Shown here: piece after piece, positions 8,619 through 35,672 of the stretch
Layout: the number at the start of each line of letters is the position of its first letter
Position numbering within the stretch: position 1 is the first letter of the stretch
Assembly: GCA_016191845.1 (NCBI GenBank)
Contig: JACPVF010000011.1
Span: 62,001 to 126,000 of the forward strand
Reading direction: 5' to 3'
Length of the DNA: 64,000 bases
From: Chloroflexota bacterium
GTDB lineage: Bacteria > Chloroflexota > Anaerolineae > Anaerolineales > Villigracilaceae
Position numbers and translations under genes: made by a program
The notes under the pieces: generated by a model
What the model was told of the DNA's origin: nothing
The model's input: only the letters and a program-made list of their open reading frames with translations
The model's database searches: none

Positions 8619-8639
8619 CCGCTCAACAAAACGAATCAA

Positions 8640-8679
8640 AACCCGCTTCGGGCCTGGACCTGAAGCGGGTTCCGTTTTT
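8640..8679 (+). terminator. Terminator of the corrinoid methyltransferase operon
   Basis: A 10-bp stem (AACCCGCTTC / GAAGCGGGTT) with a 12-base loop is followed by CCGTTTTT, 21 bases after the stop codon. Confidence 0.85.
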
Positions 8680-8724
8680 AGAGTGGTCTCGGCCCCTTTG
8701 GCGGAACCAGGCCGAGGGTCCGCG

Positions 8725-9456
8725 TTATTGGGCGGCTTCCACGGCGGCGGCAATATCGTCGAAGGATGGAACATGCCCTGGGTTGACGATCGTCCCATTG
8801 ACGAAGACACTTGGCGTCCCCTGCACACCCATCTGGTTGCCCTTATCGAATGAAGCATTGACCTCATCTACATAGCGACCTTCGCTCATGCAGCCATCGA
8901 AAGCCTGAGTATCCAGTTTCAGGGTGGCAGCAAACGCGGAAAGTCGGCTGTCGTTGAAGGCACCCTGATTCTCGCCATTCCAGTTGGCAAAGAGCATGTC
9001 GTGATATTCCCAGAACCTGCCCTGCTCGTTGGCGCACAGACTGGCCAACGCCGCACGTTGAGATTCCTTGGTGACAGAGTCGCGGTCGAGGAAGGCATAG
9101 TTATGGAAGACGTAATAGGCCTTGCCTGTTTGCACCAACTCGGTGATGACCTGATGCTCGACCTGCTCGGTGAAACGTTTGCAGGCAGGACATTGAAAAT
9201 CTTCGAAGACGTCGATGCGTACGGGCGCATTGGGGTCACCGATGCTCAGTCCGTCCACTTGCGGACGGGCCACAGCAGTCGGGACAATCACTCCACCGGG
9301 TGTGGGCGGATTAGGCGGCTCGGGTTTGCTGAGCAGAATCAACGCGCCTGCGATCAAGATAGATCCCACCAATACCAAGCCGATCATCACCTGGCGGGCG
9401 CGGGCTTTTTCGCGTTGCAGATTTTTACGCTTCGATGTCCGTTTCTCTTCACTCAT
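8725..9456 (-). CDS. Membrane-anchored DsbA/BdbD-like thiol-disulfide oxidoreductase
   Basis: A 243-residue protein with a basic N-terminus (MSEEKRTSKRKNLQREKARAR), one membrane helix at about 23-43, a Pro-rich linker, and a DsbA-like thioredoxin domain from about 70. The active site reads CPAC in FEDFQCPACKRF, and the cis-Pro loop is GTPSVFVNG. It should face outside the membrane and make or shuffle disulfides in exported proteins, several of which in this window carry cysteines (for example the SLH repeats). RBS AAGGAG lies 8 bases before ATG 9456. Monocistronic and divergent from the next gene. Confidence 0.93.
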   Translation of the reverse strand: MSEEKRTSKRKNLQREKARARQVMIGLVLVGSILIAGALILLSKPEPPNPPTPGGVIVPTAVARPQVDGLSIGDPNAPVRIDVFEDFQCPACKRFTEQVEHQVITELVQTGKAYYVFHNYAFLDRDSVTKESQRAALASLCANEQGRFWEYHDMLFANWNGENQGAFNDSRLSAFAATLKLDTQAFDGCMSEGRYVDEVNASFDKGNQMGVQGTPSVFVNGTIVNPGHVPSFDDIAAAVEAAQ

Positions 9457-9562
9457 CAGTATCTCTCCTTATCAGATAATGGCGGGATTGTGCCATGCCT
9501 GAGTCGAATTGTCCAGCAGGGCGGGCGGGTAAGGAATGGGGGCAAAATCGAGTCCACAAGTC

Positions 9563-10627
9563 ATGAGAAAACTTGCCTTAGCCGTATTGTTGTTTTTGAG
9601 CGCCTGCGCGCAGGCAACTCCCGTTCCCGTCATCCTCACCACCGAACCAACGCACACATTCACGCCCTCTCCCGTCCCCAGCGGAACACCCCTCCCAACC
9701 CAGACGCTCATTCCGACCGCCACGCCGTTCATGCATCCGATGGCCATCGAGACCCTGCGGCAGGGTTCCTACTCTGGCAGTGACATCGTCCTCGAAAAGG
9801 AATTGGAGCGTGGCGCCAATTACCACCGTTACTACGCCTATTACCTTTCTGAGGGGCTGAAGATCTACGGTCTGCTGACCGTCCCCGACGGGGAGATGCC
9901 CGTGGGCGGTTGGCCTGCCATCGTGTTCAACCACGGCTACATTCCACCCGAGATCTACAAGACCACCGAGCGCTACATCGCCTACGTGGACAAGATCGCG
10001 CGCAGCGGCTACATTGTCTTCCGCATCGACTATCGTGGACACGACCAATCGGAGGGCGAGGCCACGGGCGCATACGGCAATCCAGGCTACCTGGTGGATG
10101 TGATGAATGCGGTGGCTTCGATCAAGAAATTCCCGCAGGCCAACCCGGAGAAGATCGGCATGTGGGGCCATTCGATGGGCGGATTCTTGACCCTGCGCGC
10201 GATGGTCATCTCGAAGAATATCAAGGTTGGGGTGATCTGGGCGGGCGTGGTCGGCTCCTACCCCGACCTGGTCTATAACTGGCGGCGGACGGGTGCGGCG
10301 GTCACGCCCTCCCCCAACTCGCAGGGACGCGGCTGGCGCGCAGGCTGGCTCGAGCAATATGGCACGCCCGAACAGAATCCCGCCTTCTGGAACGCCGTCT
10401 CAGCCAACTCGTACCTGGCCGACCTCTCGGGACCGATCCAACTCCACCACGGCACCGCCGACGAGGATGTCCCCGTAGCATTTTCTGAGACGTTGTATGG
10501 ACAGATCCGCGCAGCAGGGCAATATGCCGAACTTTACACCTACCCGGGCGACAACCACAACATCTCTGCCTCGTTTGACACGGCCATGGCCCAAACCATC
10601 ACATTTTACGATGCTTATCTAAAATAA
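9563..10627 (+). CDS. Lipoprotein alpha/beta hydrolase (S9 prolyl-oligopeptidase-like)
   Basis: A 354-residue lipoprotein. ATG 9563 opens a lipoprotein signal, MRKLALAVLLFLSAC, with the lipid-acceptor Cys at about 15; the frame extending to 9536 adds nothing. A Thr/Pro linker (about 17-58) leads to an alpha/beta-hydrolase fold. The nucleophile elbow is GHSMGG and the predicted Asp and His lie in HHGTADEDVP and GDNHNI. The fold is of the dienelactone hydrolase/S9 type, so it may act as a peptidase or esterase on the cell surface. The substrate is not predictable. A terminator follows at 10653. Confidence 0.85.
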   Translation: MRKLALAVLLFLSACAQATPVPVILTTEPTHTFTPSPVPSGTPLPTQTLIPTATPFMHPMAIETLRQGSYSGSDIVLEKELERGANYHRYYAYYLSEGLKIYGLLTVPDGEMPVGGWPAIVFNHGYIPPEIYKTTERYIAYVDKIARSGYIVFRIDYRGHDQSEGEATGAYGNPGYLVDVMNAVASIKKFPQANPEKIGMWGHSMGGFLTLRAMVISKNIKVGVIWAGVVGSYPDLVYNWRRTGAAVTPSPNSQGRGWRAGWLEQYGTPEQNPAFWNAVSANSYLADLSGPIQLHHGTADEDVPVAFSETLYGQIRAAGQYAELYTYPGDNHNISASFDTAMAQTITFYDAYLK

Positions 10628-10652
10628 TCTACACGAAGAATCTGATTTTTTG

Positions 10653-10679
10653 ACGCCAACTTGCAATTGGCGTTTTTTC
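10653..10679 (+). terminator. Terminator of the lipoprotein hydrolase gene
   Basis: ACGCCAA and TTGGCGT pair around a 7-base loop and run straight into TTTTTT. The last bases abut the -35 box of the LacI gene promoter. Confidence 0.88.
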
Positions 10680-10708
10680 TTGAGTTTCCCAAAACGTTTT
10701 GGTAAAAT
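10680..10708 (+). promoter_or_regulatory. Promoter of the LacI-type gene and downstream operon
   Basis: TTGAGT (10680-10685), a 17-base spacer and TAAAAT (10703-10708). The start site would fall at about 10715, immediately before ATG 10716, so the mRNA is probably leaderless. The spacer is almost filled by the palindromic operator at 10689-10702. Confidence 0.75.
10689..10702. promoter_or_regulatory. LacI-family operator
   Basis: CCAAAACGTTTTGG is a perfect 14-bp palindrome with the central CG typical of LacI/GalR-family sites. It lies between the -35 and -10 boxes, so repressor binding would block polymerase. This suggests autoregulation by the gene that follows. Confidence 0.8.
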
Positions 10709-10715
10709 CATCTCC

Positions 10716-11735
10716 ATGCCAACCATCCGCGATGTCGCCAAGACGCTCAATCTCTCCATTACCACCGTTTCGCGCGCGCTGGACGGGTATGCCGATGTCT
10801 CCGAGGAGACCCGCCAGCGCGTGATCGCCACGGCGCAGGTGATGGGCTACGTGCCCAACCGCGCCGCCCGTCAATTGCGGCGCCAGCGGACAGACACCAT
10901 CGGTTACATTGTTCCTGCTGAAAAGCCGCAGTTTGCCGACCCTTTCTTCGCAGAATTCATCGCGGGCTTGGGTGACGAGGCCGCCAACGTCAATTACGAC
11001 CTGCTGGTCTCCACCACCCCGCCAAACTCGCCAGAGGAACAGGCTTTGTATCGGCGCTGGGTACAGGGCGGCAAAGTGGATGGGATGATCATCAACCGTA
11101 CACGCCTAAGTGACTGGCGCGTGAATTTCCTACGGGAGAACAACATCCCGTTCACCTGTCTGGAACGGTCACTCGACCAGGGTGAAGAGTTCCTGGGCGT
11201 GGAGACCGACATCAAAGACGGTTACCAGGATTTGCTCGGGCATTTGACGGCGCAAGGTCACAGCCGAATCGCCTTCATCGGCGCAGACGCCAACCTCAAG
11301 GTCCAGTATGACCGATTGCGGGCCTTCCAACAGGCGCTGACGAGTCTCGACATCCAGCCGCAAGCCCATCTGATTGTCGAAGGCGACCTGACACCCGAGG
11401 GCGGCTATCAGGCCATGCTCAGACTGTTGGCGCTCGACCAGCCGCCCAGCGCGGTGGTGTGCGTCAACGATCTGACCGCCATCGGCGCCCTCCATGCTGC
11501 GCACGACAATCACTACGTGATCGGTCGTGACCTCGCCATTGCAGGCTTCGACGGTGTCGCGGATTCGGCCCACACTCAGCCGCCGCTGACCACGCTCGAT
11601 CAACCTGTTTACGCCATTGCGCGGGCGCTGGCGCGGATGCTGTTACAAGCCATCGCGCACGAAGAGATCGACCAGCGGGTCATCACCATCAGACCCAACC
11701 TGCTTATTCGTGCCTCAACTGGAGGGAAAAGATGA
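10716..11735 (+). CDS. LacI-family transcriptional regulator
   Basis: A 339-residue repressor. The N-terminal helix-turn-helix MPTIRDVAKTLNLSITTVSR is textbook LacI/GalR, followed by the hinge and a periplasmic-binding-protein-like effector domain (about 60-339). ATG 10716 is chosen over the in-frame codon at 10650 because the HTH starts here and the promoter ends just before it. It probably controls its own promoter through the palindrome at 10689 and, by overlap, the following gene (ATGA, 4 bases shared). The effector is unknown; a sugar or sugar-like ligand is usual for the family. Confidence 0.93.
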   Translation: MPTIRDVAKTLNLSITTVSRALDGYADVSEETRQRVIATAQVMGYVPNRAARQLRRQRTDTIGYIVPAEKPQFADPFFAEFIAGLGDEAANVNYDLLVSTTPPNSPEEQALYRRWVQGGKVDGMIINRTRLSDWRVNFLRENNIPFTCLERSLDQGEEFLGVETDIKDGYQDLLGHLTAQGHSRIAFIGADANLKVQYDRLRAFQQALTSLDIQPQAHLIVEGDLTPEGGYQAMLRLLALDQPPSAVVCVNDLTAIGALHAAHDNHYVIGRDLAIAGFDGVADSAHTQPPLTTLDQPVYAIARALARMLLQAIAHEEIDQRVITIRPNLLIRASTGGKR

Positions 11736-12736
11736 TCTGGATCGAACTGCTCGTTTGCGCAGCCCTGCTTGTCTGGGCAGCCACCTATCTTTCGAAATAT
11801 GGCGACATCCTGTCTGAGAAGACAGGCCTGGGGCGGGCCTGGATCGGCGCCATCCTGATCGCAGGTGTTACCTCCCTGCCCGAATTGGCCTCGGGAGTCT
11901 CGGCCGTGGCCTGGCTAAAAGCACCCAATCTGGCAGCGGGTGCCGTGCTGGGAAGCTGTCTCTTCAACCTGGCGTTGATCGCCATGATGGACCTGGCGTA
12001 TCAGCCTGGGCGGGTGCTGGCCAAGGCCCAGGATGTGCACATCCTCTCGGGCGGATTGGGCATCCTGTTGCTGGGCCTGGTCGCCATGGGAATCCTGGTC
12101 GGCGCGGACTTGAATCATTTCGGCCTGTTGGGCGTCAGCTTCCTCAGCCTGGGTATCCTGGCGCTGTATCTGATCGGCGCACGGATGATCGCCCGCCTCG
12201 AACAGCAGCGCGTGACCGAGGTGCTGGAGCAGGAAGCCAGGGAGCAAAATTACGGCCAGGTCACAGCGCGCAAGGCCTACGTCGTTTTCATCCTGAACGC
12301 GGTGGCAGTGGTAGCGTTAGGCATCTGGCTCTCCAGCATCGGGGACCGTCTCGCGGCCACCACAGGCCTCTCGCGCAGCTTCGTCGGGAACCTGTTCCTG
12401 GCTGCCACCACCTCCCTGCCTGAAATTGCCGCCAGCCTGGCAGCCATCCGCATGGCCGCCATCGACCTGGCCATCGGCAACGTGCTGGGCAGCAATCTGT
12501 TCAACATTGTCCTGTTCACGGTATACGATATCGCCGACGGAAGCGCCAACTTTTGGGCCTCCCTGAACAACGCCAATGCCTTCGCTGCCGTCATGACCAT
12601 GATGATGACAGGCGTGGTCATCATCAGCCTGATGTACCGCGCCTCGCCGCGCCTGCCCTATCGCCTCTCCTGGGATGGATTGGCGCTGGTGTCCATGTAT
12701 TTGACTTCGATTGCAGTGTTGTATTGGCTGAGCTAA
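11732..12736 (+). CDS. Sodium/calcium exchanger-family (CaCA, YrbG-like) antiporter
   Basis: A 334-residue membrane protein with about ten hydrophobic segments. The two inverted alpha-repeats are visible: TSLPELASG with GAVLGSCLFN in the first half, and TSLPEIAAS with GNVLGSNLFN in the second. The conserved acidic residues needed for cation exchange are kept in both. A soluble stretch rich in Glu and Gln separates the halves. It would exchange Ca2+ (or another cation) for Na+ or H+. Its start overlaps the regulator's stop, so they are co-transcribed. Confidence 0.9.
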   Translation: MIWIELLVCAALLVWAATYLSKYGDILSEKTGLGRAWIGAILIAGVTSLPELASGVSAVAWLKAPNLAAGAVLGSCLFNLALIAMMDLAYQPGRVLAKAQDVHILSGGLGILLLGLVAMGILVGADLNHFGLLGVSFLSLGILALYLIGARMIARLEQQRVTEVLEQEAREQNYGQVTARKAYVVFILNAVAVVALGIWLSSIGDRLAATTGLSRSFVGNLFLAATTSLPEIAASLAAIRMAAIDLAIGNVLGSNLFNIVLFTVYDIADGSANFWASLNNANAFAAVMTMMMTGVVIISLMYRASPRLPYRLSWDGLALVSMYLTSIAVLYWLS

Positions 12737-12759
12737 TTGCTCTTGAATCAAACGAAAAG

Positions 12760-14739
12760 ATGAATATCAAATTATCGACCTGGTTCGAAAAAATCATGAC
12801 CTCACAAACGCTCAGTCTGGGCGGACTGGCCTTGCTGGTCGGATTAACCACGGGCATGGGCGTCTGGCTGTTCAAATGGCTGATCGAGCTCGTGCGCGGA
12901 TTCACCGCCAGTCTAGTCCACGGCTGGATGGCGATCCTGCCGCCTGTCATCGGCGGGGTCATCGTCGGGCTGGTGGCGCATTATCTGATCGGGAATGAAA
13001 AATTACACGGCACGGCGGGCATCATGCAATCCGTGGCGCTGACAGGCGGACGCTTGCGCTACCAAAATGCACCCGTCAAAACGGCAGCGGCCATCCTCTC
13101 CATCGGGTCGGGGGCCTCGGTGGGTCCTGAAGACCCCTCGGTCCAGATCGGTGCCAACCTCGGCTCGATGTTCGGTCAGGTCTTCCACATGTCCGACGAG
13201 CGTATCCGCACGTTGGTGGCGGCAGGCGCGGCCAGCGCCATTGCGGCCGCGTTCAATGCGCCCATCGCAGGGGTGTTCTTCGCGCTCGAGATCGTGCTGG
13301 GAGAGATCTCGGGCAACGCGTTGGGGATGATCCTGGTGGCAGCGGTGACTTCCTCCGTGTTTACGCAGGCAGTGGCTGGGAGTTCGCCTGCCTTTCAGGT
13401 GCCCGCCTATGCCTTCAATTCGGTCTGGGAATTGCCGTTATACCTCGCGCTCGGGTTGCTGTCGGGGCCCATCTCGGCCATGTATGTGCGCCTGTTGTAC
13501 CGCATGCAGGACCTGTTCGGCGGTTGGAATGCGCCGCGTCCGCTCAAGACGGCTTCGGCTGGACTGGCCGTCGGCCTGGTGGGCCTCTTCCTGCCGCAGG
13601 TACTCGGCGTGGGCTACGAGACCATCGGCGAAGTGCTGAACAAAAACGACCTTGGCCTCTGGTTATTGATCGCGCTGTTGATCGCCAAACTGATCCTCAC
13701 CCCCGTCAGCATCGGCGGTGGATTTTTGGGCGGTGTTTTTGCACCCTCGCTATTCGTCGGCGCCACACTGGGCGGTGCGTTCGGCATGTTGATGGCGAAC
13801 CTGTTCCCCGGCCTGGGCGTCAGTCCCGCCGCTTTTGCCCTGGTGGGCATGGCCGCTGTGCTGGCGGGAGCCGTCCACGCACCGCTGACAGCCGTACTGC
13901 TGCTCTTCGAGATGACCAACGACTATCGCATCATCCTGCCGCTGATGTTTTCCGTAGCGATCAGCCTGGTGCTCTCGCAGCGCATCCAGCGGGACTCGGT
14001 CTACGCGATGGGTCTGGCGCGACACGGTATCCGCCTGGACCGTGGCCGGGATGTGGAGGTGATGAGCGCCATCACGGTCGGTGAGGCCATGCGGCCTGGG
14101 ACGGAGTCCCTGCCCGAGAGTATGAACCTGATCGAAGCGGCGGAGACCTTGTCCAAAATGCGGCATCACGGCCTGCCCGTGGTGGACGCCGGAAACCGAC
14201 TGTCGGGCATCATCACCGTCCAGGATATCGAGCACGCCACGGGGGAGACGGTTGGCGATGCCTGCACCCGCCAGGTGGAGGTGGCTTTCCCCGACGAGAC
14301 GCTCAACATGGCCTTGCGCCGCATGAGCCGCCGTGATGTGGGGCGCCTGCCCGTGGTCTCCAGGGAGAATCCGCGCCAATTGTTGGGCGTGCTGCGTCGC
14401 GCGGATGTGATCCACGCCTATGACATTGCACTCACCCGCCGCGTGACTCAGCGACACCAGGAGCACGCCGTCCGCCTCGACGCACTGACCCCCGCCCGCG
14501 TGGATGTCTCGGACATCGTGGTGGAGATCGGAGCGCCCTCCGCGGGGAAACGCGTGAACGAGATCGCCTTCCCGCAAGGGTGCATCATCGCCAGCGTGCG
14601 CCGCGGCGGACAGGTCTTCATCCCGCGCGGCGAAACTCGCCTGCTGGCAGGAGATGTGCTGGTCGTGGTGGCCGAAGGCGCAGCGCGGACGGAAGCGCAA
14701 CGCCTGTGCAGCCGCCCCGATGGCGAATTGTCGCCATGA
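12760..14739 (+). CDS. ClC-type chloride channel/transporter with CBS pair and TrkA-C domain
   Basis: A 659-residue protein. Residues 1-430 form the ClC membrane domain: GSGASVGPEDPSVQ keeps the gating glutamate (GPEDP, normally GREGP) and GGGFLGGVFAPSLF matches the GGxFxP motif. Two CBS domains (about 435-560) and a TrkA-C/RCK-C-like domain (about 590-655) follow. In helix H the sequence is FNAPIAGVFFALEI; by comparison with E. coli ClcA the internal proton glutamate is replaced by Ile (13291-13293), so it may conduct Cl- without proton coupling. ATG 12760 is 23 bases after the antiporter gene and in its operon; the frame extending to 12553 overlaps that gene and is rejected. Confidence 0.92.
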   Translation: MNIKLSTWFEKIMTSQTLSLGGLALLVGLTTGMGVWLFKWLIELVRGFTASLVHGWMAILPPVIGGVIVGLVAHYLIGNEKLHGTAGIMQSVALTGGRLRYQNAPVKTAAAILSIGSGASVGPEDPSVQIGANLGSMFGQVFHMSDERIRTLVAAGAASAIAAAFNAPIAGVFFALEIVLGEISGNALGMILVAAVTSSVFTQAVAGSSPAFQVPAYAFNSVWELPLYLALGLLSGPISAMYVRLLYRMQDLFGGWNAPRPLKTASAGLAVGLVGLFLPQVLGVGYETIGEVLNKNDLGLWLLIALLIAKLILTPVSIGGGFLGGVFAPSLFVGATLGGAFGMLMANLFPGLGVSPAAFALVGMAAVLAGAVHAPLTAVLLLFEMTNDYRIILPLMFSVAISLVLSQRIQRDSVYAMGLARHGIRLDRGRDVEVMSAITVGEAMRPGTESLPESMNLIEAAETLSKMRHHGLPVVDAGNRLSGIITVQDIEHATGETVGDACTRQVEVAFPDETLNMALRRMSRRDVGRLPVVSRENPRQLLGVLRRADVIHAYDIALTRRVTQRHQEHAVRLDALTPARVDVSDIVVEIGAPSAGKRVNEIAFPQGCIIASVRRGGQVFIPRGETRLLAGDVLVVVAEGAARTEAQRLCSRPDGELSP

Positions 14740-14762
14740 ACCCTTTACAGGAGTAGCAACGT

Positions 14763-15353
14763 ATGGACGCCCTGAACCAACTCTTTCAGTCCAATCCGCT
14801 TGCCCTGCCGCTGTTCATCTTTGTCGCCCGCATCATGGACGTCAGCCTGGGCACACTGCGCATCATCTCGCTCTCGCGTGGACGCAAATACCTGGCTCCC
14901 ATCCTCGGTTTCTTCGAGGTCTTCATCTGGGTGGTGGCCATCAGCCAGTTGGTGCGCAATCTGACGCATATTTCAGGATACCTGGCCTATGCCGCAGGCT
15001 TCGCCGCGGGAAACTACATCGGCATGTGGCTGGAGGAAAAACTCGCCATGGGCATGCTGACCCTGCGCATCTTCGCCGTACGGGAGGGTCCCGACCTGTC
15101 GAAACGGCTGGCCGCCGCGGGCTTCGGCGTGACCACGCTCCCGGGTCACGGGGCCGAGGCGCAGGTCGAGGTGCTTTTCGTCATCATCCATCGCCGTGAC
15201 CTGGATCAGGTCGTACAGATCATCCGCGAGGTCAATCCCAAAATTTTCTATTCCGTCGAAGAGGTGCGCGCCTCCAACCAGGGTGTCTTCCCCGCGCAAA
15301 GCAAGGGGACCCAACGTTACAGTCAATTCTTCAATTGGGCAAAACGGAAATAG
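14763..15353 (+). CDS. UPF0316/DUF2179-type membrane protein
   Basis: A 196-residue protein with three or four N-terminal membrane helices (about 15-95) and a soluble C-terminal alpha/beta domain ending in SVEEVRASNQGVF, as in the UPF0316 (YebE-like) family. The function of the family is not established. RBS CAGGAG lies 8 bases before ATG 14763, which is 23 bases after the ClC gene and 15 before asnB, so it belongs to the same transcription unit. Confidence 0.85.
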   Translation: MDALNQLFQSNPLALPLFIFVARIMDVSLGTLRIISLSRGRKYLAPILGFFEVFIWVVAISQLVRNLTHISGYLAYAAGFAAGNYIGMWLEEKLAMGMLTLRIFAVREGPDLSKRLAAAGFGVTTLPGHGAEAQVEVLFVIIHRRDLDQVVQIIREVNPKIFYSVEEVRASNQGVFPAQSKGTQRYSQFFNWAKRK

Positions 15354-15368
15354 CCAGAAAGGAATCAC

Positions 15369-16868
15369 ATGTGCGGATTTGTCGGATGTCATCCGAGTCA
15401 CCAACCACAATTGATCGAACAGGCCGTTCAGCGGATCACTCACCGCGGGCCTGATGAACAGGGGGTGACGTCCACGCCGATGGGCACGCTAGGACATGCC
15501 AGATTGTCCATCGTGGATGTGGCCGACAGCCACCAACCCATGAGCGACGGTCCACGCTGGATCGTGTTCAACGGCGAGATCTACAACTTCCAATCCTTGC
15601 GCAAAACCCTGCCCGCCCCGTGGAAAACCCACGGTGATACCGAAGTGATCTTGAAGCTATATGCCCAGAAGGGACCACGCGTCGTCACCCAACTCGACGG
15701 CATGTTTGCCTTTGTCATCCTTGATGAAGGCATCTGCCTGGCGCGCGATCCGTTGGGAATCAAGCCGCTGTACTATGTGCGCAACGGACCCACGTTGTAC
15801 TTTGCCTCCGAAGCCAAGGCGCTGATGGATTTCGGCGGGAAGATCGTCGAGTTCCCTGCAGGCCACACCTGGGACGGGGCTGACCGTTGGGAGCGTTTCT
15901 TCAACCCATTCGACATTCAGATCGATGAGTCGATCCGCAAAAACGCAGACCTGGACGAACGCATCCACTCGACCCTGCGGCAGGCCGTCCAAAAGCGGCT
16001 GATCGCCGACCCCGAGATTCCCGTGGGCGTCAGCCTCTCGGGCGGACTCGACAGCAGCCTGATCACCGTCCTGGCGCGCGAAGGCCGCGACGTGCTGGAC
16101 ACCTTCGTCGTAGGCATGGCAGGCAGCGAGGACATCGCCCGCTCCGAAGAGGTGGCGCGCGCGCTTGGCACTCGTCACCACATCTACCGTTACGACTTCA
16201 CTGAGATGCTGCAAGTGCTGCCCGAGGTCATCTATCACCTCGAATCCTTCGACGCCGCGCTGGTGCGCAGTGCCATTCCCAACTACTTCCTGGCACGGCT
16301 GGCGGGTCAGCACGTCAAGGTCATGCTGACAGGCGAGGGCGCCGATGAACTCTTTGGCGGATATGCCTACCTCAGAGGGGTGACCGACCCTGTCCATTTC
16401 CAGCGCGAACTGTGCCTGACCCTGGACACCCTCCACAACACCAACCTGCAGCGCACCGACCGCATGACCATGGCCCACAGCATCGAAGGCCGCGTTCCCT
16501 TCCTGGACCTGGAGATGGTGCGTCTGGCCCTGAGCATTCCTCCCGCCTTGAAATTCCACGACGAGGTCATCCCCGAAAAATGGTTGCTGCGGCGCGCCTT
16601 CAAGGGTTACCTGCCCGACTCGATCCTGAATCGCCCCAAGCAGAAATTCTCGCAGGGCGCAGGCTCGATGAACCTGCTGGCCGATTATGCCAATGAGCAG
16701 ATCACCGACGCCCAGTTTGCCGCCGCACGGATTGAATATGTCTCAGCAGGGTTGCGCTCGAAAGAGGAGCTGCTGTATTACCGTATCTTCCGCGAGCAAT
16801 TCGGGGAACGCCTCGATCCTGCCCGCGTTGGTAGAACCCGTTCGATTACTGGTACCGAATTGAATTGA
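15369..16868 (+). CDS. asnB: Glutamine-hydrolysing asparagine synthetase
   Basis: A 499-residue enzyme making Asn from Asp, ATP and Gln. The N-terminal glutaminase domain starts with Cys2 (MCGFVGC) and keeps FNGEIYNF and GDTEVIL. The synthetase domain has the PP-loop SLSGGLDSSLI at about residue 220, and TGEGADELFGGY. At 499 residues it is shorter than many bacterial AsnB proteins but contains both complete domains. RBS AAAGGA precedes ATG 15369. Neighbours suggest amino-acid metabolism rather than antibiotic or lasso-peptide work. Confidence 0.95.
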   Translation: MCGFVGCHPSHQPQLIEQAVQRITHRGPDEQGVTSTPMGTLGHARLSIVDVADSHQPMSDGPRWIVFNGEIYNFQSLRKTLPAPWKTHGDTEVILKLYAQKGPRVVTQLDGMFAFVILDEGICLARDPLGIKPLYYVRNGPTLYFASEAKALMDFGGKIVEFPAGHTWDGADRWERFFNPFDIQIDESIRKNADLDERIHSTLRQAVQKRLIADPEIPVGVSLSGGLDSSLITVLAREGRDVLDTFVVGMAGSEDIARSEEVARALGTRHHIYRYDFTEMLQVLPEVIYHLESFDAALVRSAIPNYFLARLAGQHVKVMLTGEGADELFGGYAYLRGVTDPVHFQRELCLTLDTLHNTNLQRTDRMTMAHSIEGRVPFLDLEMVRLALSIPPALKFHDEVIPEKWLLRRAFKGYLPDSILNRPKQKFSQGAGSMNLLADYANEQITDAQFAAARIEYVSAGLRSKEELLYYRIFREQFGERLDPARVGRTRSITGTELN

Positions 16869-27977: not shown

Positions 27978-28880
27978 ATGAAGATCGCAGTAACTGGAGC
28001 CTTTAGCTATTCGGGCAAGTACATCACCAAACGTTTGTTGGAACGCGGCGAGGAGGTCATCACACTGACGGGCCATCCCAACCGCCCCGACCCATTCGGA
28101 GGAAAGGTGCGCGCCTTCCCGCTGGACTTCAACGACCCGCGCGGCCTGACCGAATCCCTGCGCGGCGTGGACACCTTCTACAATACCTACTGGGTGCGCT
28201 TCGACAAGGGTTCGAACACCCAGCCTGCCGCCGTGGAGAACACACGCAAGCTGGTGCGGGCCGCAGCGGAGGCGGGCGTGCGACGCATCGTCCACATCAG
28301 CATCACCAACCCCAACGCGGACTCGCCCCTGCCATATTTCTGGGGCAAGGCCGCCAACGAAAAAGCCGTGATCGAATCGGGCATGGAGTATGCCATTCTG
28401 CGACCGACGGTGCTGTTCGGCAAGGAAGACATCCTGATCAACAACATTGCCTGGCTGCTGCGGCGCTTTCCGTTCTTTGCCCTGCCGGGCGACGGGAGGT
28501 ATCGCCTGCAGCCCGTCTACGTGGATGATTTGGCGGCACTGGCGGTTGACTCTGGCTACGCGCAAGGCGATTTCATCTGGGATGCGGTCGGACCCGAGGA
28601 TTTCACCTTCCGTGGGATGGTGGAGAAGATCGGCCAGACCATCGGGCAGCCGCGCCTGCTGCTGACGGTGCATCCGCAACTGGCGCTCAAGGCAGCACAA
28701 TTCCTCAGTCTGTTCGTGCGTGACGTGTTGCTGACCCCCGAGGAAGTCGACGGCCTGATGGCGAACCTGTTGATCTCGCAGGAGCCGCCGCGCTGCCCCA
28801 CCCGCCTGAGCGACTGGCTCGTCGAGCACAAATCCACGGTGGGCGTGGAATATGCATCGGAACTCAAAAGACACTTTTAA
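27978..28880 (+). CDS. Atypical SDR, NmrA/NDUFA9-like NAD(P)-binding protein
   Basis: A 300-residue protein with the Rossmann start MKIAVTGAFSYSGKYITKRL (GxxxxxGK). The body is NmrA/complex-I-assembly-like: VHISITNPNADSPLPYFWGK then ESGMEYAILRPTVLFG, and YVDDLAALAV. The classical YxxxK is not evident, so it may sense NAD(P)H rather than catalyse a reaction. RBS AAAGGA precedes ATG 27978. A small membrane protein follows 15 bases later. Confidence 0.85.
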   Translation: MKIAVTGAFSYSGKYITKRLLERGEEVITLTGHPNRPDPFGGKVRAFPLDFNDPRGLTESLRGVDTFYNTYWVRFDKGSNTQPAAVENTRKLVRAAAEAGVRRIVHISITNPNADSPLPYFWGKAANEKAVIESGMEYAILRPTVLFGKEDILINNIAWLLRRFPFFALPGDGRYRLQPVYVDDLAALAVDSGYAQGDFIWDAVGPEDFTFRGMVEKIGQTIGQPRLLLTVHPQLALKAAQFLSLFVRDVLLTPEEVDGLMANLLISQEPPRCPTRLSDWLVEHKSTVGVEYASELKRHF

Positions 28881-29329: not shown

Positions 29330-31672
29330 CTACGGACGGATCAGCTGCGCCTCGACCCACATGGACCAATCCATATAGGAATATGAGCCAGGGTCCACTT
29401 CGAGGATGAACCAGCCGTTCTTCCCGACCAACTCGGGCGGGATGGGAAGCAGCCAATCGGTCACGGTCCCGTCGTTGAACTGCTGGCTCGACCCGATCAG
29501 GATGGCCGTCTGCGGATCGCCTTCAAAGAAGGAAACGCGGAAGGTGACGCCATCGTACAAAGCAGCTTCGCCCGAATCCAGCGACACAGGCGGCGGCAGG
29601 CGATAGCCCGTCTTCAAGGTCAGGTAGTCATCCCGCCCCAGTATGATTTGGGTCAGGTCGAAGAATCCACCCAATTTGAGGTTGTAGCAGCCGTCAAAGG
29701 AACAACGCGGATACGCCAGAACTACGCTCTTCGTAGAACCATCAGGGCGTCGATCCCAACCCGCGTAAGGCTGGTTGAATTCCTGCACGAAGAAATCGGG
29801 CGCATAGTCTCCAGGCTTTTCGAGAAACTTCACATCGCTGTACTGGTCATAGCCCACGATGGCGTTGCCCGAGTAGTCGGCATAATACATGGCCCAGGTC
29901 GCCCTGTTGGCCTGCTCGATGAAGTCGAACAAGAGGATGGGAGCCGCCGTGGGGGTGGCAGTCGGCGTGAGGGTCAGCGTGGCAGGCGTCGGCGTGAAGG
30001 TGGGAGGCGGCGTCTTCGTGGCCGTGGCGGTCGGGGTGAGGGTGTCGATCTCGGGCGGAAGCGGGGTCACGGGCGGGGGCTTGGGGAAGAACAGGATTCC
30101 CAGCACGATCAGCGCCCCCAACGCCAGAGTCCCTGCGACAGCCGCGCCACATCCGCAGTTGAAATAACGGCGGCAGCCAGACTGTCCGCCTTTGACGGGC
30201 AGCGGGATGCCCATCAGCACGTTGAGGTTGTGTTGGGTGACGGCCAGCCCAGCCTTGTCGCCGATCAACTGGCGGAGATTGAGCGCCTGCGTGAGCAGGG
30301 ATTTGCCCTGCTCGGCCAGCCCAAGACACAGGGCGCGGCTGCCGAGTTGATGCAGCACCCAGGCCTCGACCTTTTTGTCGCCCAACATGCGCGCGGCCTT
30401 GAGGATGATGTTCAACACGTCCGACCAGGCCTGCCAGCGTTTCCACAACGCGTAAGTCTTCTCGAGCGCGCGCCCGATGCGGATGACCTCGGGCCATTTC
30501 TTTTTCTCCTCGGCCTTCTTCACCGCGCGGATGAGCGCCTCAGCCGACTCCTCCATCAGCATCTGCGACGGCTGCTGGCTGACCCAGTTGACGAAATAAT
30601 TGATGAGCGTGTCTTCCCACGAGGTCAGGTTCCAGGAGGCAGCCAGGGTGGCAACCAGATCGCCGCGCAAACTGTAGCGCGGACTGTGCGCCTGCACCAA
30701 GCCCAGGTTGACTAGCCCGCGCGCGGCGGCCTGCACCTCGGGATCGCTGGTCAACGCGAGCAGGTGATCGAGCGAGATGATCGCCCCACCCGATGCGGCT
30801 AGGATGGCCAGGATGCGCTTTTGGGTCTCAGTCAGGGTGTTGATGGCGGCGTTGGTCACCGCCTGCTCGGGAAGTTGGGTGTGGGCCTGGGTCAACAGGT
30901 CCGCGACGGGGAGATTCCGCTCCCGCACCAGCGCGGCGGCCTGCAGGATGCGCAGGGGATGTCCGCCCATCGACAGGCACAACGCCTTGACCTGGTCCCG
31001 CTCCCCGTCGCTGAACGCTCGGCCTGATTCCCGTTCGAAGAGCGCCAGCGCCTCTGCTTCGGGCAAGCCGCCCAACGGGACGAGTTTTCCCTCCCCCCAC
31101 AGGCTGCGTTGCGGCGACGCCAGCACAAACTGACATTGCGGTGCGGCATCGAGCAGGGTGGTCACTTCATCGCGGGCCAATTCGAGGTCGTCGAGAATGA
31201 TCAGCGCACGCAGGTTCTGCAAGCCAAGGCGGATCTCGGCCTCGGTCGGCTTGAAGGCGGGCGGGCTGTCGTAAAAAGCATCGAACAGGGATTGGAGCAG
31301 GTCGTCGAGACGCAGGTCGGTCACATCCAGAAAAACCACACCATCGGTGAATTGCGTGATCTCGGGCAGGTAGGCCAACTGGCGCAGGAAGGAGGTCTTG
31401 CCGATGCCGCCATCGCCGAACAAAGAGACGGGCGTAGAGGACTGCAAGGCTTCTTTGACGGCCGTGAATTCTGCCTCGCGATCGAGCAAGGCCTGGAACG
31501 GGCGCGGACGCAGGGTCACGGGCGCGGGGCGGCGGGTGGTGCGTGGAGTGCTGGATGGCGCCGTCACATTGACCACGCCCCCGTTGACATCGCCGATCTG
31601 GAGGATGTAACTGCCCACGGCCACCTGGCCGCTGACGTTCCCCTTGATATCGAGTTTCACATTTTCAGCCAT
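29330..31672 (-). CDS. Transmembrane STAND (NB-ARC-like) ATPase with extracytoplasmic C-terminal domain
   Basis: A 780-residue protein. Residues 1-45 hold a Gly/Val-rich beta motif (KGNVSGQVAVGSYILQIGDV). An NB-ARC-type STAND ATPase spans about 55-350: P-loop GDGGIGKTS at 86-94, Walker B ALIILDDLE near 156-164, and GGHPL near 236 as the sensor motif. Helical TPR-like repeats run to about 485. A Cys-rich patch (CRRYFNCGCG) precedes a membrane helix at about 508-529, then a Thr/Pro linker (530-578) and a 200-residue beta-rich exported domain. It thus links an outside sensor to an inside switch ATPase. The upstream DUF2726 gene ends 21 bases before this start and is co-directional. I know no named system with this layout. 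Confidence 0.85.
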   Translation of the reverse strand: MAENVKLDIKGNVSGQVAVGSYILQIGDVNGGVVNVTAPSSTPRTTRRPAPVTLRPRPFQALLDREAEFTAVKEALQSSTPVSLFGDGGIGKTSFLRQLAYLPEITQFTDGVVFLDVTDLRLDDLLQSLFDAFYDSPPAFKPTEAEIRLGLQNLRALIILDDLELARDEVTTLLDAAPQCQFVLASPQRSLWGEGKLVPLGGLPEAEALALFERESGRAFSDGERDQVKALCLSMGGHPLRILQAAALVRERNLPVADLLTQAHTQLPEQAVTNAAINTLTETQKRILAILAASGGAIISLDHLLALTSDPEVQAAARGLVNLGLVQAHSPRYSLRGDLVATLAASWNLTSWEDTLINYFVNWVSQQPSQMLMEESAEALIRAVKKAEEKKKWPEVIRIGRALEKTYALWKRWQAWSDVLNIILKAARMLGDKKVEAWVLHQLGSRALCLGLAEQGKSLLTQALNLRQLIGDKAGLAVTQHNLNVLMGIPLPVKGGQSGCRRYFNCGCGAAVAGTLALGALIVLGILFFPKPPPVTPLPPEIDTLTPTATATKTPPPTFTPTPATLTLTPTATPTAAPILLFDFIEQANRATWAMYYADYSGNAIVGYDQYSDVKFLEKPGDYAPDFFVQEFNQPYAGWDRRPDGSTKSVVLAYPRCSFDGCYNLKLGGFFDLTQIILGRDDYLTLKTGYRLPPPVSLDSGEAALYDGVTFRVSFFEGDPQTAILIGSSQQFNDGTVTDWLLPIPPELVGKNGWFILEVDPGSYSYMDWSMWVEAQLIRP

Positions 31673-31693
31673 ACCGATAAATCCTTCCGTACT

Positions 31694-32296
31694 TCAACGA
31701 AGGGGAACCACGCCAGGGCAGCGCGGGTTGTCCATGCAGCCGTAATACTCCTTCCCCTTTTGAGGTCCGTCGCGATGAATGCGCAGGACCATCATCCGTC
31801 CACAGACGGGACACATCGGCACCGAGTCGGCGGCGGAATCCACGCGCGGCCTGGCGTTGGATTTGGTCAACGCCAACTGGAATAAGTTGACCAGGTCCGA
31901 AAGGACGTAGTTCGCGGCGGAGGGCACGTGCACGAGCGGGATGCCTGCCTCCAGGAAGAGATCCTCCATGAACTGGTCGGCGGTGCGCGTCTCGGACTTG
32001 GCGATGGGCTTGACCATCTCCACGCCGAAGGCGGGTTTCATACTCTGCGGTTCGCACAGCAGAAAGTCGACGTGCTTACGAAAGATCTTGTTGAAATAAT
32101 GGACGTTCTCGTTGGGACGGACGATCATGAAGATGTCGTTCAGGGCCACCTTGGGGCAGACCACGTAACGGCCCTCGCTCATCTTCGTCAGCGCACGGAA
32201 GAGGGCGAGTTCGGGGGACGATAACAACTGTCCGCGCAGGCGGTAGGGAAGGCGGTCGTCGCTCTTCGGAGGCGGGGCAGGCATCGGGTCGGCCAT
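31694..32296 (-). CDS. DUF2726 (nuclease-fold-like) protein with C-terminal zinc ribbon
   Basis: A 200-residue protein. Residues about 25-145 match the DUF2726 layout (LSSPELALFRAL, CPKVALNDIF, FRKHVDFLLCEP, GVEMV). In that family, related to Vsr/PD-(D/E)xK folds, the core usually reads vDF...IELD. Here the Asp and Glu are kept but the second Asp is lost, so activity is uncertain. A topoisomerase-type four-Cys zinc ribbon (CPVCGRM...YYGCMDNPRCPG) closes the protein. A TATAAT 14 bases before the ATG gives a very short leader. The STAND gene follows in the same direction. Confidence 0.82.
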   Translation of the reverse strand: MADPMPAPPPKSDDRLPYRLRGQLLSSPELALFRALTKMSEGRYVVCPKVALNDIFMIVRPNENVHYFNKIFRKHVDFLLCEPQSMKPAFGVEMVKPIAKSETRTADQFMEDLFLEAGIPLVHVPSAANYVLSDLVNLFQLALTKSNARPRVDSAADSVPMCPVCGRMMVLRIHRDGPQKGKEYYGCMDNPRCPGVVPLR

Positions 32297-33766: not shown

Positions 33767-35560
33767 TTACTGCTTGGACATCACCACCAACCAAAGCCCG
33801 CCGCCAAAATCCGCTTCGGTGATGAAAAAATCATTGTCCCAATCCGCAGCAATGCCTTCCTCTGGGAAGATCTCTCTCTTGTAATAATATTGATTCGAGA
33901 AACCCGTTCCCGTGGACATGACGATTACCCAGGTTGAGTTTCCGTAGGCGACGGTGGTGATGTCATACTTGGAATCCCAGTAATTGCGGACCTTGTCTTC
34001 AGGGAAAACCGCGTCCATAAAATACACCTGCGCACCCAACCCCGCATCCTTCGACATGACCACCACCCAGATCCCATTGCCATAGGCCAGCGACGTGATG
34101 GCGTATCCCTTGTCCCAGTATTCCTTGATGTCGGCATCGGACAGGGCCGCATCGGCGAGATAACTTTGGTTACTGAATCCCGTGCCTACACTCATCACCA
34201 CATACCACTTACTCCCGCCATAAGATACACTCGTAATATCGAAACCTTTGTCCCAGTATTCCTTGATCTTGTCCTTGGGGAAATTGGAGGCGCTGAAGTA
34301 GGCCTGATCGGTATAGCTGACCTGCTTGTTCATAACCAGCATCCATTCGCTTCCGTTGTAAGCCATGCCGCCGATGTAATGATCCCGATCCCAACAATGC
34401 TGGATCTCCTGCTCGGGGAAATAATCCCGTTGGAGCCAGGTCTGTTCGCCTTCGCAAAAGACAGACGGCGTAGCTGTTTCGGTCGATACGGGTAACGGTG
34501 CCGTCGGCCAAAAGCGGCTGAACAGTCCCAAAGCAGCGGCCACCCCCACACAACAGGCCAGGGCCAGGATGCCGCTGCCCACCAGCAGCCAGGGCATGGG
34601 CTTTTTCTGTTTGGGCGGCATCGTTGTCTGTGAGGACCCGGGGGTGGATCCCGTTTTTTGGGCGGGTCCGCTCGTGGGCATTTTTTCCGTTTCCGCCCGC
34701 AGACGGATGGCCGTACCCTGCATGGGGACTCCCGCCTCATCCCATGCGGACTTGAACGCCACAACCAGGTCGCTGACCTTCTGGTACCGGTCGGCGCGAT
34801 CCTTGGACAGCGCCTTGAGCAGTACCTGCTCCACGCTGACTGGCACGGATGGGTTGATCGAACGCGGCAGGGGCAGCGGAGTGTAGATATGGTCGTAGAT
34901 GATCGGAAAAGGCGTGTCGGCGTTGAAGGGGACCTGCCCCACCACCATCTCGTACAACATGACGCCGAAGGAGTAGATGTCCGTACCCTCGTCCAGGTCC
35001 CGTTTGCCGAGGGCCTGCTCGGGCGAGATGTATTGCGGCGTACCGACGATCGAATCCGTCGACAGCGTGGATTCGCCGTCCTGGGCGATACGCGCCAACC
35101 CAAAGTCCGCAAGATAGATGTGACCGTCCGCGCCAAGCAACACGTTCGACGGCTTGACATCCCGATGCAGAATGCCATGCTGGTGGGCGTACTCCAACGC
35201 TGAGCCGACCGTGTCGAGCACGTCGTTGATCTCCTGCGAGGTAAGCGGACCGCGCCATAAGCGGTCTTTGAGCGTCTCACCTTGGATGAACTTCATCACC
35301 AGGTAGGGATAGTGATCCTGCTCGGCAAAATCATGCACGGCCACGATATTCGGGTGATCGAGCCTGGCGATCAGGCGCGCCTCGCGCTTGAAACGAGCGG
35401 TGAAGGTGGGATCCTGATTGAGATTGGGATGCAACACTTTGATGGCCACGTACCGGTCGAGGCTGGCGTGATAAGCCTTGTAAACCGATGCCATCCCACC
35501 CTGGCCGAGCTGTTCAATGATCTGATAGGGGCCGATCGAATCGCCGACTGCAAAAGGCAT
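33767..35560 (-). CDS. Membrane Ser/Thr protein kinase with five extracytoplasmic repeats
   Basis: A 597-residue PknB-type kinase. ATG 35560 (MPFAVGDSIGPYQIIEQLGQ) is chosen because GGGAG precedes it; the 28-residue upstream extension is not kinase-like. Kinase motifs: GQGGMASVYKA, AIKVLHP, LHRDVKPSNVLL, LADFGLA, GTPQYISPEQ. After a linker comes one membrane helix (WLLVGSGILALACCVGVAAA, about 350-372). The exported part is five tandem repeats of about 46 residues with the pattern EYWDKGFDITSVSYGGSKWY then VVMS. The repeats resemble the DUF7477-type repeats known from other kinases and are probably the sensor. It has no clear operon partner. Confidence 0.92.
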   Translation of the reverse strand: MPFAVGDSIGPYQIIEQLGQGGMASVYKAYHASLDRYVAIKVLHPNLNQDPTFTARFKREARLIARLDHPNIVAVHDFAEQDHYPYLVMKFIQGETLKDRLWRGPLTSQEINDVLDTVGSALEYAHQHGILHRDVKPSNVLLGADGHIYLADFGLARIAQDGESTLSTDSIVGTPQYISPEQALGKRDLDEGTDIYSFGVMLYEMVVGQVPFNADTPFPIIYDHIYTPLPLPRSINPSVPVSVEQVLLKALSKDRADRYQKVSDLVVAFKSAWDEAGVPMQGTAIRLRAETEKMPTSGPAQKTGSTPGSSQTTMPPKQKKPMPWLLVGSGILALACCVGVAAALGLFSRFWPTAPLPVSTETATPSVFCEGEQTWLQRDYFPEQEIQHCWDRDHYIGGMAYNGSEWMLVMNKQVSYTDQAYFSASNFPKDKIKEYWDKGFDITSVSYGGSKWYVVMSVGTGFSNQSYLADAALSDADIKEYWDKGYAITSLAYGNGIWVVVMSKDAGLGAQVYFMDAVFPEDKVRNYWDSKYDITTVAYGNSTWVIVMSTGTGFSNQYYYKREIFPEEGIAADWDNDFFITEADFGGGLWLVVMSKQ

Positions 35561-35642
35561 GGCTCGCTCCCGAAGGCAAATCTTTGTGCTGTGTTCCTTA
35601 TACAAGATAAGCCAAAATGAACTCAAAGGCAAGCACGGAATC

Positions 35643-35672
35643 AAAATAGGCCCCCGCTTTTGGCGGAGGCCT
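35643..35672 (-). terminator. Terminator of the amino-sugar gene cluster
   Basis: On the minus strand AGGCCTCCGC and GCGGGGGCCT pair with one mismatch around CAAAA and run into ATTTTG, directly after the SIS gene stop at 35689. Confidence 0.78.

What the first reader, a model, noticed from the sequence alone, without database searches (positions are those of the whole stretch)
29330..32296. Two-gene system: transmembrane STAND ATPase plus DUF2726/zinc-ribbon protein
The STAND protein has a cytoplasmic NB-ARC switch and TPRs, a membrane helix, a Thr/Pro stalk and an outside beta domain. This is the reverse of most defence STANDs, which sense inside. It is transcribed with a nuclease-fold-like protein bearing a nucleic-acid-type zinc ribbon. 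The layout suggests that an outside ligand triggers an inside response, possibly on nucleic acid. I know no described system with this pairing.
Basis: inference. Interest (0 to 1): 0.66.

Follow-up and report, generated by a model that had tools for sequence, protein, structure and literature searches.

The report
Membrane NLR-like receptor with shared adaptor motif
A membrane-spanning, immune-receptor-like bacterial protein carries at its inner end a short adaptor motif that recurs on a protease, a TIR protein and other conflict-type proteins of the same genome, so it probably senses something outside the cell and recruits such effectors, while its gene neighbour DUF2726 looks like a bystander.

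Summary
Both genes are real: a 780-aa STAND (NB-ARC) ATPase with one membrane helix, a Thr/Pro stalk and an outer domain, and a 200-aa DUF2726/zinc-ribbon protein 21 bp upstream. The topology reading holds; the two-gene system does not. DUF2726 relatives occur in 98 of 150 family genomes; of 59 DUF2726 genes in fetched loci, 46 follow a PolyA_pol/CCA-type gene and 10 lie near the STAND. Within genus g9 it does not track the STAND (p=0.42), and its ExD/K nuclease position is mostly lost.

In the same genome it recurs at the C-terminus of a trypsin-like protease, a TIR protein and a Roco GTPase, and at the N-terminus of a membrane protein. A profile finds it in 45 of 150 family genomes, the reversed control in 0. 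Motif-bearing TIRs accompany the STAND (15/20 versus 4/130 genomes); in one TIR clade 6 of 10 STAND-less genomes lack the motif, 0 of 12 STAND-bearing ones. Outer domains are exchanged between relatives.

Best reading: an outside-sensing NLR that recruits protease/TIR effectors encoded elsewhere through a shared, possibly amyloid, motif. No experiment supports this yet.

The parts
29330..31672 (-). STAND (NB-ARC) receptor gene, 780 aa
   Evidence: homologue over full length 74-76% identical in a same-genus genome
31571..31660 (-). N-terminal adaptor motif, about residues 5-34 (VKLDIKGNVSGQVAVGSYILQIGDVNGGVV)
   Evidence: profile match at this place (this row is in the profile); the same motif on other proteins of the own genome that were not in the first profile; reversed control 0 of 150 genomes
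30851..31468 (-). NB-ARC/STAND NTPase region, residues 69-274
   Evidence: Pfam NB-ARC E 5.3e-5, just under the curated cut-off
31394..31417 (-). Walker A motif GDGGIGKT, residues 86-93
   Evidence: sequence; a G..GK[TS] pattern found in 23 of 29 STAND rows, the six without it include one fragment
30086..30142 (-). transmembrane helix, residues 511-529
   Evidence: hydropathy maximum 2.49; similar position in relatives
29942..30079 (-). Thr/Pro-rich stalk, residues 532-577
   Evidence: sequence; P/T/S fraction 0.47 after the TM
29333..29941 (-). outer domain, residues 578-780 (family weakly NPCBM-like; the window's own copy has no Pfam match)
   Evidence: 12-row alignment A7; NPCBM E 0.0032-0.058 in 3 of 12 members, below cut-off; low-confidence mostly-strand model
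31694..32296 (-). DUF2726/zinc-ribbon protein, 200 aa; neighbour, probably not a specific partner
31712..31819 (-). C4 zinc ribbon of the DUF2726 protein (Cys 162, 165, 187, 193)
   Evidence: Pfam Zn_ribbon_GRF/Top1; the four Cys conserved in 59 of 59; PDB profile matches to NEIL3 (E 0.001) and topoisomerase chains

Best explanation
The STAND protein is the receptor of a lineage-specific, NLR-like signalling network. Its outer domain (exchangeable between relatives) binds a ligand outside the cytoplasmic membrane; the signal crosses through the single helix and drives nucleotide-dependent clustering of the inner NB-ARC domains (inferred). Clustering brings together the ~30-residue N-terminal beta-type motifs, which recruit effectors carrying the same motif at their C-terminus, probably by RHIM/BASS3-like cross-beta templating (inferred). 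In this genome the candidate effectors are a trypsin-like protease and a TIR protein encoded elsewhere. The outcome is probably self-damage or growth arrest (inferred from the effector types). The adjacent DUF2726 protein is a widespread gene beside which the STAND often lies, not its dedicated partner.
For: Motif shared in the own genome: trypsin C-terminus E 1.5e-7, TIR C-terminus 7.3e-7, Roco C-terminus 6e-3, N-terminus of a TM protein 1e-3, with a profile built from 16 STANDs and one STAND-adjacent protein, so these four were not in the profile; Pfam confirms the trypsin, TIR and Roc/COR domains. Specificity: a 19-row profile (which does contain several of these proteins) matches in 45 of 150 family genomes at E<=1e-3, its reversed copy in 0 of 150; 6 of 301 genomes drawn from the phylum at E<=1e-4, five of them of this family, the own genome included. 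Position rule: of 41 further motif places read, 17 are TIR proteins, 1 a trypsin-like and 1 a caspase-like protein with the motif near the C-terminus (domains by eye; six of these 41 proteins were scanned). Co-occurrence of the STAND with the intact motif-TIR: 15/20 versus 4/130 genomes, Fisher p=3e-13; within genus g9 12/16 versus 4/38, p=7e-6; DUF2726 in g9 p=0.42. Counting three STAND fragments as present, or adding the other motif-TIRs that I read, leaves p at 9e-6 and 3e-6 in g9. In the g9 TIR clade (22 genomes, support 100/99) the motif is kept in 12 of 12 STAND-bearing genomes; 6 of 10 STAND-less ones have a stop before it or end after the TIR domain (p=0.003). Tree-corrected pairs (58 genomes): of 8 pairs differing in STAND the TIR goes the same way in 4.9, the other way in 0.1, on average, median p 0.06; reverse test median p 0.03. 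In two relatives a small protein with the motif lies next to the STAND (L081, L082).
Against: No biochemical test. Pfam lists no RHIM match at E<=1. The published BASS3 peptide scores only modestly on the motif profile (67 of 5000 shuffles as good). Cognate STAND-TIR motif pairs in one genome are no more alike than non-cognate ones (1582 of 5000 permutations as good). The own trypsin and TIR genes have no receptor beside them and lie on other contigs. The own TIR has Gln where the other 12 of 13 aligned TIRs have Glu, so it may be inactive. 5 of 20 STAND genomes lack the orthologous motif-TIR: G103 and G113 have another motif-TIR, G031 and G041 the small adjacent protein, G146 (87% complete) neither seen. 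4 STAND-less genomes keep it (G111, G141, G143, G135; G135 has a STAND fragment). Other motif-bearing TIRs occur in STAND-less genomes too (G102, G114, G122, and a weak form in G030), so the motif-TIR link is not exclusive to this STAND. The tree-corrected test is only borderline. STAND-DUF2726 adjacency in 10 of 20 genomes is far more than chance placement and remains a point for some association.
Confidence: 0.6

Rival explanations
1. One reading: STAND and DUF2726 form a two-gene system; the receptor activates a nuclease-fold, nucleic-acid-binding protein.
For: 21-bp gap, same strand; STAND within 6 kb of DUF2726 on the same strand in 10 of 20 STAND genomes, with both gene orders; zinc-ribbon Cys conserved in 59 of 59; E29, D77, E93 largely conserved; over all 150 genomes DUF2726 associates with the STAND, p=0.001.
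Against: DUF2726 present in 79 of 130 STAND-less genomes, and independent of the STAND within g9; 46 of 59 DUF2726 genes have a PolyA_pol gene upstream; in 9 other STAND genomes DUF2726 is elsewhere; ExD/K third position lost in most; the DUF2726 protein of the window shows no such motif (by eye).
Confidence: 0.15
2. The shared motif is a homotypic adaptor but not amyloid: short beta segments that pair or form a small beta-solenoid in a defined complex, comparable in role to globular EADs.
For: Short regular beta/Gly-Asn pattern; Pfam lists no RHIM match; only modest similarity to the BASS3 peptide.
Against: Position rule (receptor N-terminus, effector C-terminus), length and the G-x-V-x-V-G-x-x-N pattern are those described for bacterial amyloid signalling motifs (PMC8086366, PMC7889193, passages).
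Confidence: 0.3
3. The motif is a composition artefact or a small mobile coding cassette that inserts into unrelated genes, without signalling meaning.
For: Very diverse host proteins; nearly confined to one family.
Against: Reversed control 0 of 150; many host proteins are conflict-type receptors and effectors with the motif at consistent ends; linked presence with the STAND. DNA-level similarity of the motif copies was not tested.
Confidence: 0.06
4. A membrane stress or developmental sensor rather than defence: the network regulates cell behaviour.
For: No phage linkage was tested; a Roco, an HTH-like and TM-only proteins also carry the motif.
Against: Effector types (TIR, trypsin, caspase) resemble proteins of known conflict systems; one own-genome motif gene lies beside type I restriction and caspase-type genes.
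Confidence: 0.3

Closest known systems
Bacterial NLR amyloid signalosomes (BASS1-10 motifs, Bell effectors; Dyrka 2020 not seen, known here through passages of PMC8086366 and PMC7889193)
   Same: Short motif at the NLR N-terminus repeated at the C-terminus of an effector; the BASS3 type is RHIM-like; TIR and CHAT effectors are reported.
   Different: Here the receptor spans the membrane with an outer domain; the own candidate effectors are encoded elsewhere and are trypsin and TIR proteins; a Bell domain was not searched for by profile; membership in a BASS family was not shown.
EAD-based conflict systems (PMC7159879, PMC8195603; passages read)
   Same: Adaptor shared by a STAND and by trypsin/TIR/caspase effectors; NPCBM and FGS lectin-like sensors; further copies elsewhere in the genome.
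   Different: Adaptor is a ~22-30-residue beta-type motif, not a globular EAD; the sensor is predicted outside the membrane.
Avs-type antiviral STANDs (recalled, and a passage of PMC10907252)
   Same: STAND switch.
   Different: Avs carry fused N-terminal effectors and sense phage proteins inside the cell.
DUF2726 REase-fold proteins (PMC3710099, passages)
   Same: P0002 matches the family.
   Different: ExD position lost in most of the orthologues aligned; fused zinc ribbon; usually beside a CCA/PolyA_pol-type gene.

Membership tests
STAND/NB-ARC NTPase | P-loop NTPase with Walker A/B and STAND-type profile | tested here: met
   NB-ARC E 5.3e-5 (0.5 bits under the curated cut-off), a close relative (L082) 4.5e-12; GDGGIGKT and ALIILDD
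STAND/NB-ARC NTPase | C-terminal helical/TPR repeats | tested here: inconclusive
   TPR_12 E 0.13 in the window protein, 6.4e-6 and 9.4e-6 in two relatives
Bacterial amyloid signalosome (BASS) | same short motif at receptor N-terminus and effector C-terminus | tested here: met
Bacterial amyloid signalosome (BASS) | receptor and effector encoded by adjacent genes | tested here: not met
   own trypsin and TIR genes lie on other contigs without a receptor beside them; a motif-bearing small protein is adjacent to the STAND in L081/L082
Bacterial amyloid signalosome (BASS) | motif matches a described BASS/RHIM family | tested here: inconclusive
   BASS3 peptide 67 of 5000 shuffles as good, an archaeal BASS3-like peptide 137 of 5000; no Pfam RHIM match listed at E<=1; BASS profiles not available here
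Bacterial amyloid signalosome (BASS) | forms cross-beta fibrils and templates | not testable with these tools
   needs peptides
EAD conflict system | globular EAD domain | not tested
   motif is ~22-30 residues; EAD profiles were not searched by name, and no Pfam match covers the motif in P0001
DUF2726 nuclease | DUF2726 profile | tested here: met
   E 1.1e-17
DUF2726 nuclease | intact D...ExD/K active site (pattern recalled) | tested here: not met
   D77 58/59, E93 54/59, but position 95 V in 48/59 and D in 5/59; K/R at position 96 in 52/59 might substitute
TIR NADase effector | TIR domain with catalytic Glu | tested here: inconclusive
   TIR_2 E 1.1e-19; Glu at the aligned position in 12 of 13, Gln in the own genome; assignment of this Glu as catalytic is recalled

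The most novel reading that the evidence does not exclude
A bacterial counterpart of Toll-like/necrosome signalling: transmembrane NLRs with interchangeable outer sensors pass an extracellular signal inward by prion-like templating of a RHIM-like motif onto TIR, protease, caspase and Roco proteins scattered over the genome, forming one shared amyloid signalling hub in a Chloroflexota lineage.
Probability: 0.35. Interest if true: 0.88.

Novelty: new variant of a known kind. Interest (0 to 1): 0.64.

Why it matters
As far as I know, bacterial NLR signalling has been described mainly as inside sensing, with fused effectors or an effector in the next gene. A receptor that carries the same kind of switch across the membrane and shares its adaptor motif with effectors encoded elsewhere would let bacteria answer outside threats with self-destructive or protective effectors, and would put the origin of RHIM-type signalling within reach of simple peptide and co-expression tests. 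The motif profile also gives a way to map the whole network from genomes.

Tried and rejected
Rejected: DUF2726 as the dedicated partner. Led nowhere: structure models of P0002 (pLDDT 46.2) and of the outer domain (51.5), too poor for a fold search, so none was run; PDB searches with P0001 (1ub0 at E 0.002 and 6mfv, a TPR sensor, at 0.023), with the outer-domain profile (antibody chains at E 0.16 and above) and with the own trypsin (none at 0.001). Genome-specific covariation of STAND and TIR motifs was looked for and not found. A first HMM scoring of the BASS3 peptide returned no output and was replaced by an ungapped profile score with shuffles. tRNA scan of the window: none. Viral-contig scans, the phage, plasmid and E. 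coli collections and Rfam were not used.

Limits of the counts. STAND-bearing means a match above 300 bits, where at most 6 candidates per genome were scored; G118, G135 and G137 have shorter pieces (88, 75 and 131 bits) and were counted as lacking it, with the alternative count. Other motif-TIRs (G102, G103, G113, G114, G122, G137, second copies in G135 and G143, a weak one in G030) were left out of the main count and added. Many genomes are incomplete. The 54 g9 genomes are those named in call outputs, perhaps not all. G099 and G126 are sisters with stops at nearby places; G101 and G123 branch first in the clade, so the secure independent losses number three. Of the places that I had not yet seen, 41 were read and some weaker rows were not. 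Domain calls are by eye except six proteins scanned. Gene calling was a crude longest-ORF script: DUF2726 was missed in L094, L109 and L134, and in the window a shadow ORF replaced the epimerase gene 27978-28880, so undercounts. The 'PA14-like' reading of the own TM motif protein is recalled; Pfam gave none. The species-proxy tree used 58 of 150 genomes, chosen because their DUF2726 loci had been fetched. The empty reversed control carries the tool's own caution that no positive is known for it.
Full report
Observation. Pfam puts NB-ARC (E 5.3e-5, half a bit below cut-off) on the STAND and DUF2726 plus a GRF/Top1-type zinc ribbon (under cut-off) on the neighbour. Hydropathy gives one helix at residues 511-529. 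The window lies in contig C10 of a 4.63-Mb genome; the one relative found in the named collection, L005, is a groundwater Chloroflexi MAG, and a same-genus genome (G014) holds a contig of the same length.

The STAND family. In 150 genomes of the family, 20 have a relative above 300 bits; ten further places score 158 to 208 bits. Read side by side, the inner half is conserved and the outer domain changes: the FDFV-type domain of the window, an FGE-sulfatase domain (L074), a PAN domain with a 3-keto-disaccharide-hydrolase-like stretch (L082), DUF7507 with SdrD_B and LysM (L088), and others without a Pfam name. Three of twelve FDFV-type members match NPCBM weakly (E 0.0032 to 0.058, under cut-off), the window's own does not. 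NPCBM and FGE/FGS domains are proposed invader sensors in bacterial STAND systems (PMC8195603, passages read), there inside the cell. Of 29 STAND rows, two are incomplete; the other 27 have a TM at a similar place, with more K/R before it than after in 26 and a tie in one. A Walker A pattern was found in 23 of the 29.

The neighbour. DUF2726 relatives occur in 98 of 150 genomes (66 of 88 good ones). Of 59 main-cluster DUF2726 genes in the loci I fetched, 46 have a PolyA_pol-family gene upstream on the same strand within 6 kb (Pfam-confirmed in two examples), 40 have an epimerase-type gene running towards them, and 10 have the STAND within 6 kb. In 8 of these 10 the STAND sits between the PolyA_pol gene and DUF2726, an interval that in other genomes holds an inositol-phosphatase-type gene or others; in the window's genus the order is DUF2726 then STAND. 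In 9 of the other 10 STAND genomes DUF2726 lies elsewhere; in G146 none was found and the contig ends at the STAND. DUF2726 is described as REase-fold (PMC3710099, passages). In 59 aligned proteins E29 (58), D77 (58) and E93 (54) are kept, but position 95, Asp in the ExD form, is Val in 48 and Asp in 5; position 96 is K/R in 52, so an altered active site cannot be excluded. The zinc ribbon profile matches NEIL3 and topoisomerase chains.

The motif. Residues ~5-34 of the STAND are conserved across the family as a beta/Gly-Asn pattern. A profile from 16 STANDs and one STAND-adjacent small protein, searched in 16 chosen genomes, also found other proteins. In the own genome these are: a trypsin-like protein with the motif at its C-terminus (E 1.5e-7), a TIR protein likewise (7.3e-7), an LRR-Roc-COR protein likewise (6e-3), and a small TM protein with the motif at its N-terminus (1e-3). 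Pfam confirms Trypsin_2 (1.2e-15), TIR_2 (1.1e-19) and Roc/COR; the trypsin has AHV, DV and GFSG stretches that look like an intact triad (by eye). A second, 19-row profile, which includes these proteins, found the motif in 45 of 150 family genomes at E<=1e-3; its reversed copy in 0 of 150. In 301 genomes drawn from the phylum 6 matched at E<=1e-4: the own genome, four others of this family, and one of the same class. Reading 41 further places gave 17 TIR proteins, a trypsin-like and a caspase-like protein with the motif near the C-terminus; two remnants of broken TIR genes; two TIR proteins with the motif at the N-terminus or in the middle; several Roco proteins; short helical proteins; TM proteins with outer domains and the motif at the N-terminus; and a few that I cannot class.

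What it resembles. BASS3/RHIM motifs sit at NLR N-termini and effector C-termini (PMC8086366 and PMC7889193, passages read). The published BASS3 peptide VDLRDAKGVQVGDGNVQINRF fits the motif profile better than all but 67 of 5000 shuffles, an archaeal BASS3-like peptide all but 137; two sigma-type peptides do not fit (1088 and 2730 of 5000). This is a hint, not membership. In the own genome the STAND motif is closest to the trypsin motif (score 54) and the TIR motif (47), 0 of 500 shuffles as good for each, then the TM protein's (35; 4 of 500), while STAND-Roco is not distinguishable (77 of 500); the best pair of all is TIR with the TM protein (86).

Co-occurrence. Searching a 13-row TIR alignment in the 150 genomes gave intact stand-alone TIRs with the motif in 19 genomes: 15 of 20 with the STAND, 4 of 130 without (p=3e-13); in genus g9 12 of 16 versus 4 of 38 (p=7e-6). 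The same test for DUF2726 in g9 gives 15 of 16 versus 33 of 38 (p=0.42); over all 150 genomes DUF2726 does associate (19/20 versus 79/130, p=0.001), which the genus test suggests is lineage structure. With three STAND fragments counted as present, g9 gives 13 of 19 versus 3 of 35 (p=9e-6); with all other motif-TIRs that I read added, 14 of 16 versus 7 of 38 (p=3e-6), so motif-TIRs also occur without this STAND. In a supported g9 TIR clade of 22 genomes, all 12 STAND-bearing genomes keep the motif. In 6 of 10 STAND-less ones it is cut off or absent: a stop inside the TIR domain (G062), stops between TIR and motif (G099, G126, sisters), or an end after the TIR domain (G120, G101, G123). G101 and G123 branch first and might never have had it, so the secure losses number three. 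Independent pairs on a 58-genome tree give 8 pairs differing in STAND, with TIR going the same way in 4.9 and the other way in 0.1 on average (median p 0.06); 8 pairs differing in TIR, same way 5.8, other way 0.0 (median p 0.03). Cognate motif pairs are not more alike than non-cognate ones (15 genomes, 1582 of 5000), which fits a shared hub or weak specificity and gives no support for private pairs. The own trypsin has relatives in 12 of 150 genomes (E<=1e-15), with the motif seen in G000, G014 and G024.

Mechanism. Shown by sequence: anatomy, motif sharing, motif position, co-occurrence with TIR. Inferred: outside ligand, nucleotide-driven clustering, motif assembly, effector activation. The own TIR has Gln where the other 12 of 13 aligned TIRs have Glu, so in this genome the protease may be the better effector candidate. 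A defence role is plausible: the own Roco-motif gene lies in a same-strand run with type I restriction enzyme and specificity genes upstream and a caspase-type gene downstream, and PADLOC matches the own trypsin to domains of RT-protease, Lmu and Avs1 proteins and the own TIR to TIR domains of Argonaute-linked and SAVED proteins; a relative's TIR (L251) also matches Thoeris ThsB (domain-level matches only).

Print. Searches for bacterial amyloid signalling with NLR, BASS3/RHIM, DUF2726, Chloroflexi STAND/amyloid, TIR/trypsin/NLR, the Dyrka title words, STAND with transmembrane and extracellular domain, and Bell/BASS, in an open-access library only, listed no paper whose title, abstract start or passages that I saw describe this receptor or this motif network. 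The Dyrka 2020 paper itself was not seen. PMC7159879 notes outer domains on other conflict proteins (GAP1-N2 systems; passage).

Verdict. A real and unusual receptor; the pairing with DUF2726 is not upheld; a motif-based network with protease and TIR effectors is the better-supported reading, at confidence 0.6, with the amyloid step weaker.

Noticed in passing
L177 (G000:C13:329000-345000), 4951-5625 and 7481-15995, minus strand: Own-genome run of type I restriction enzyme, specificity subunit, Roco GTPase with C-terminal motif, a 204-aa ORF, a caspase-type protein, and further on a small TM protein with the motif at its N-terminus: looks like a conflict island.
   Followed up: partly
DUF2726 loci L093-L142: The interval between the PolyA_pol/CCA-type gene and DUF2726 holds different genes in different genomes (none, inositol phosphatase type, STAND, others), as if it accepts insertions.
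   Followed up: partly
L176:5248-5856 (own TIR): Gln where 12 of 13 aligned TIRs have Glu at the position that is probably catalytic.
   Followed up: no
L068 (G001:C56): The STAND relative is interrupted by one in-frame stop while its motif-TIR looks intact.
   Followed up: no
L180:12500-15546: Adjacent genes: a Roco protein with C-terminal motif and a 296-aa protein with N-terminal motif.
   Followed up: no
L081, L082: A ~150-172-aa protein with the motif near its N-terminus and a seemingly helical rest lies directly beside the STAND; a possible Bell-like effector; the L082 copy has no Pfam match.
   Followed up: partly
L222, L229/L315, L221: Small proteins with N-terminal motif, TM helix and outer domain but no NTPase; G143 has a motif-TIR and such a protein but no STAND of this type was found there.
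   Followed up: no
window 33767-35644 (-): PknB-like kinase followed by a DUF7477 domain (E 7e-34), near the pair.
   Followed up: no
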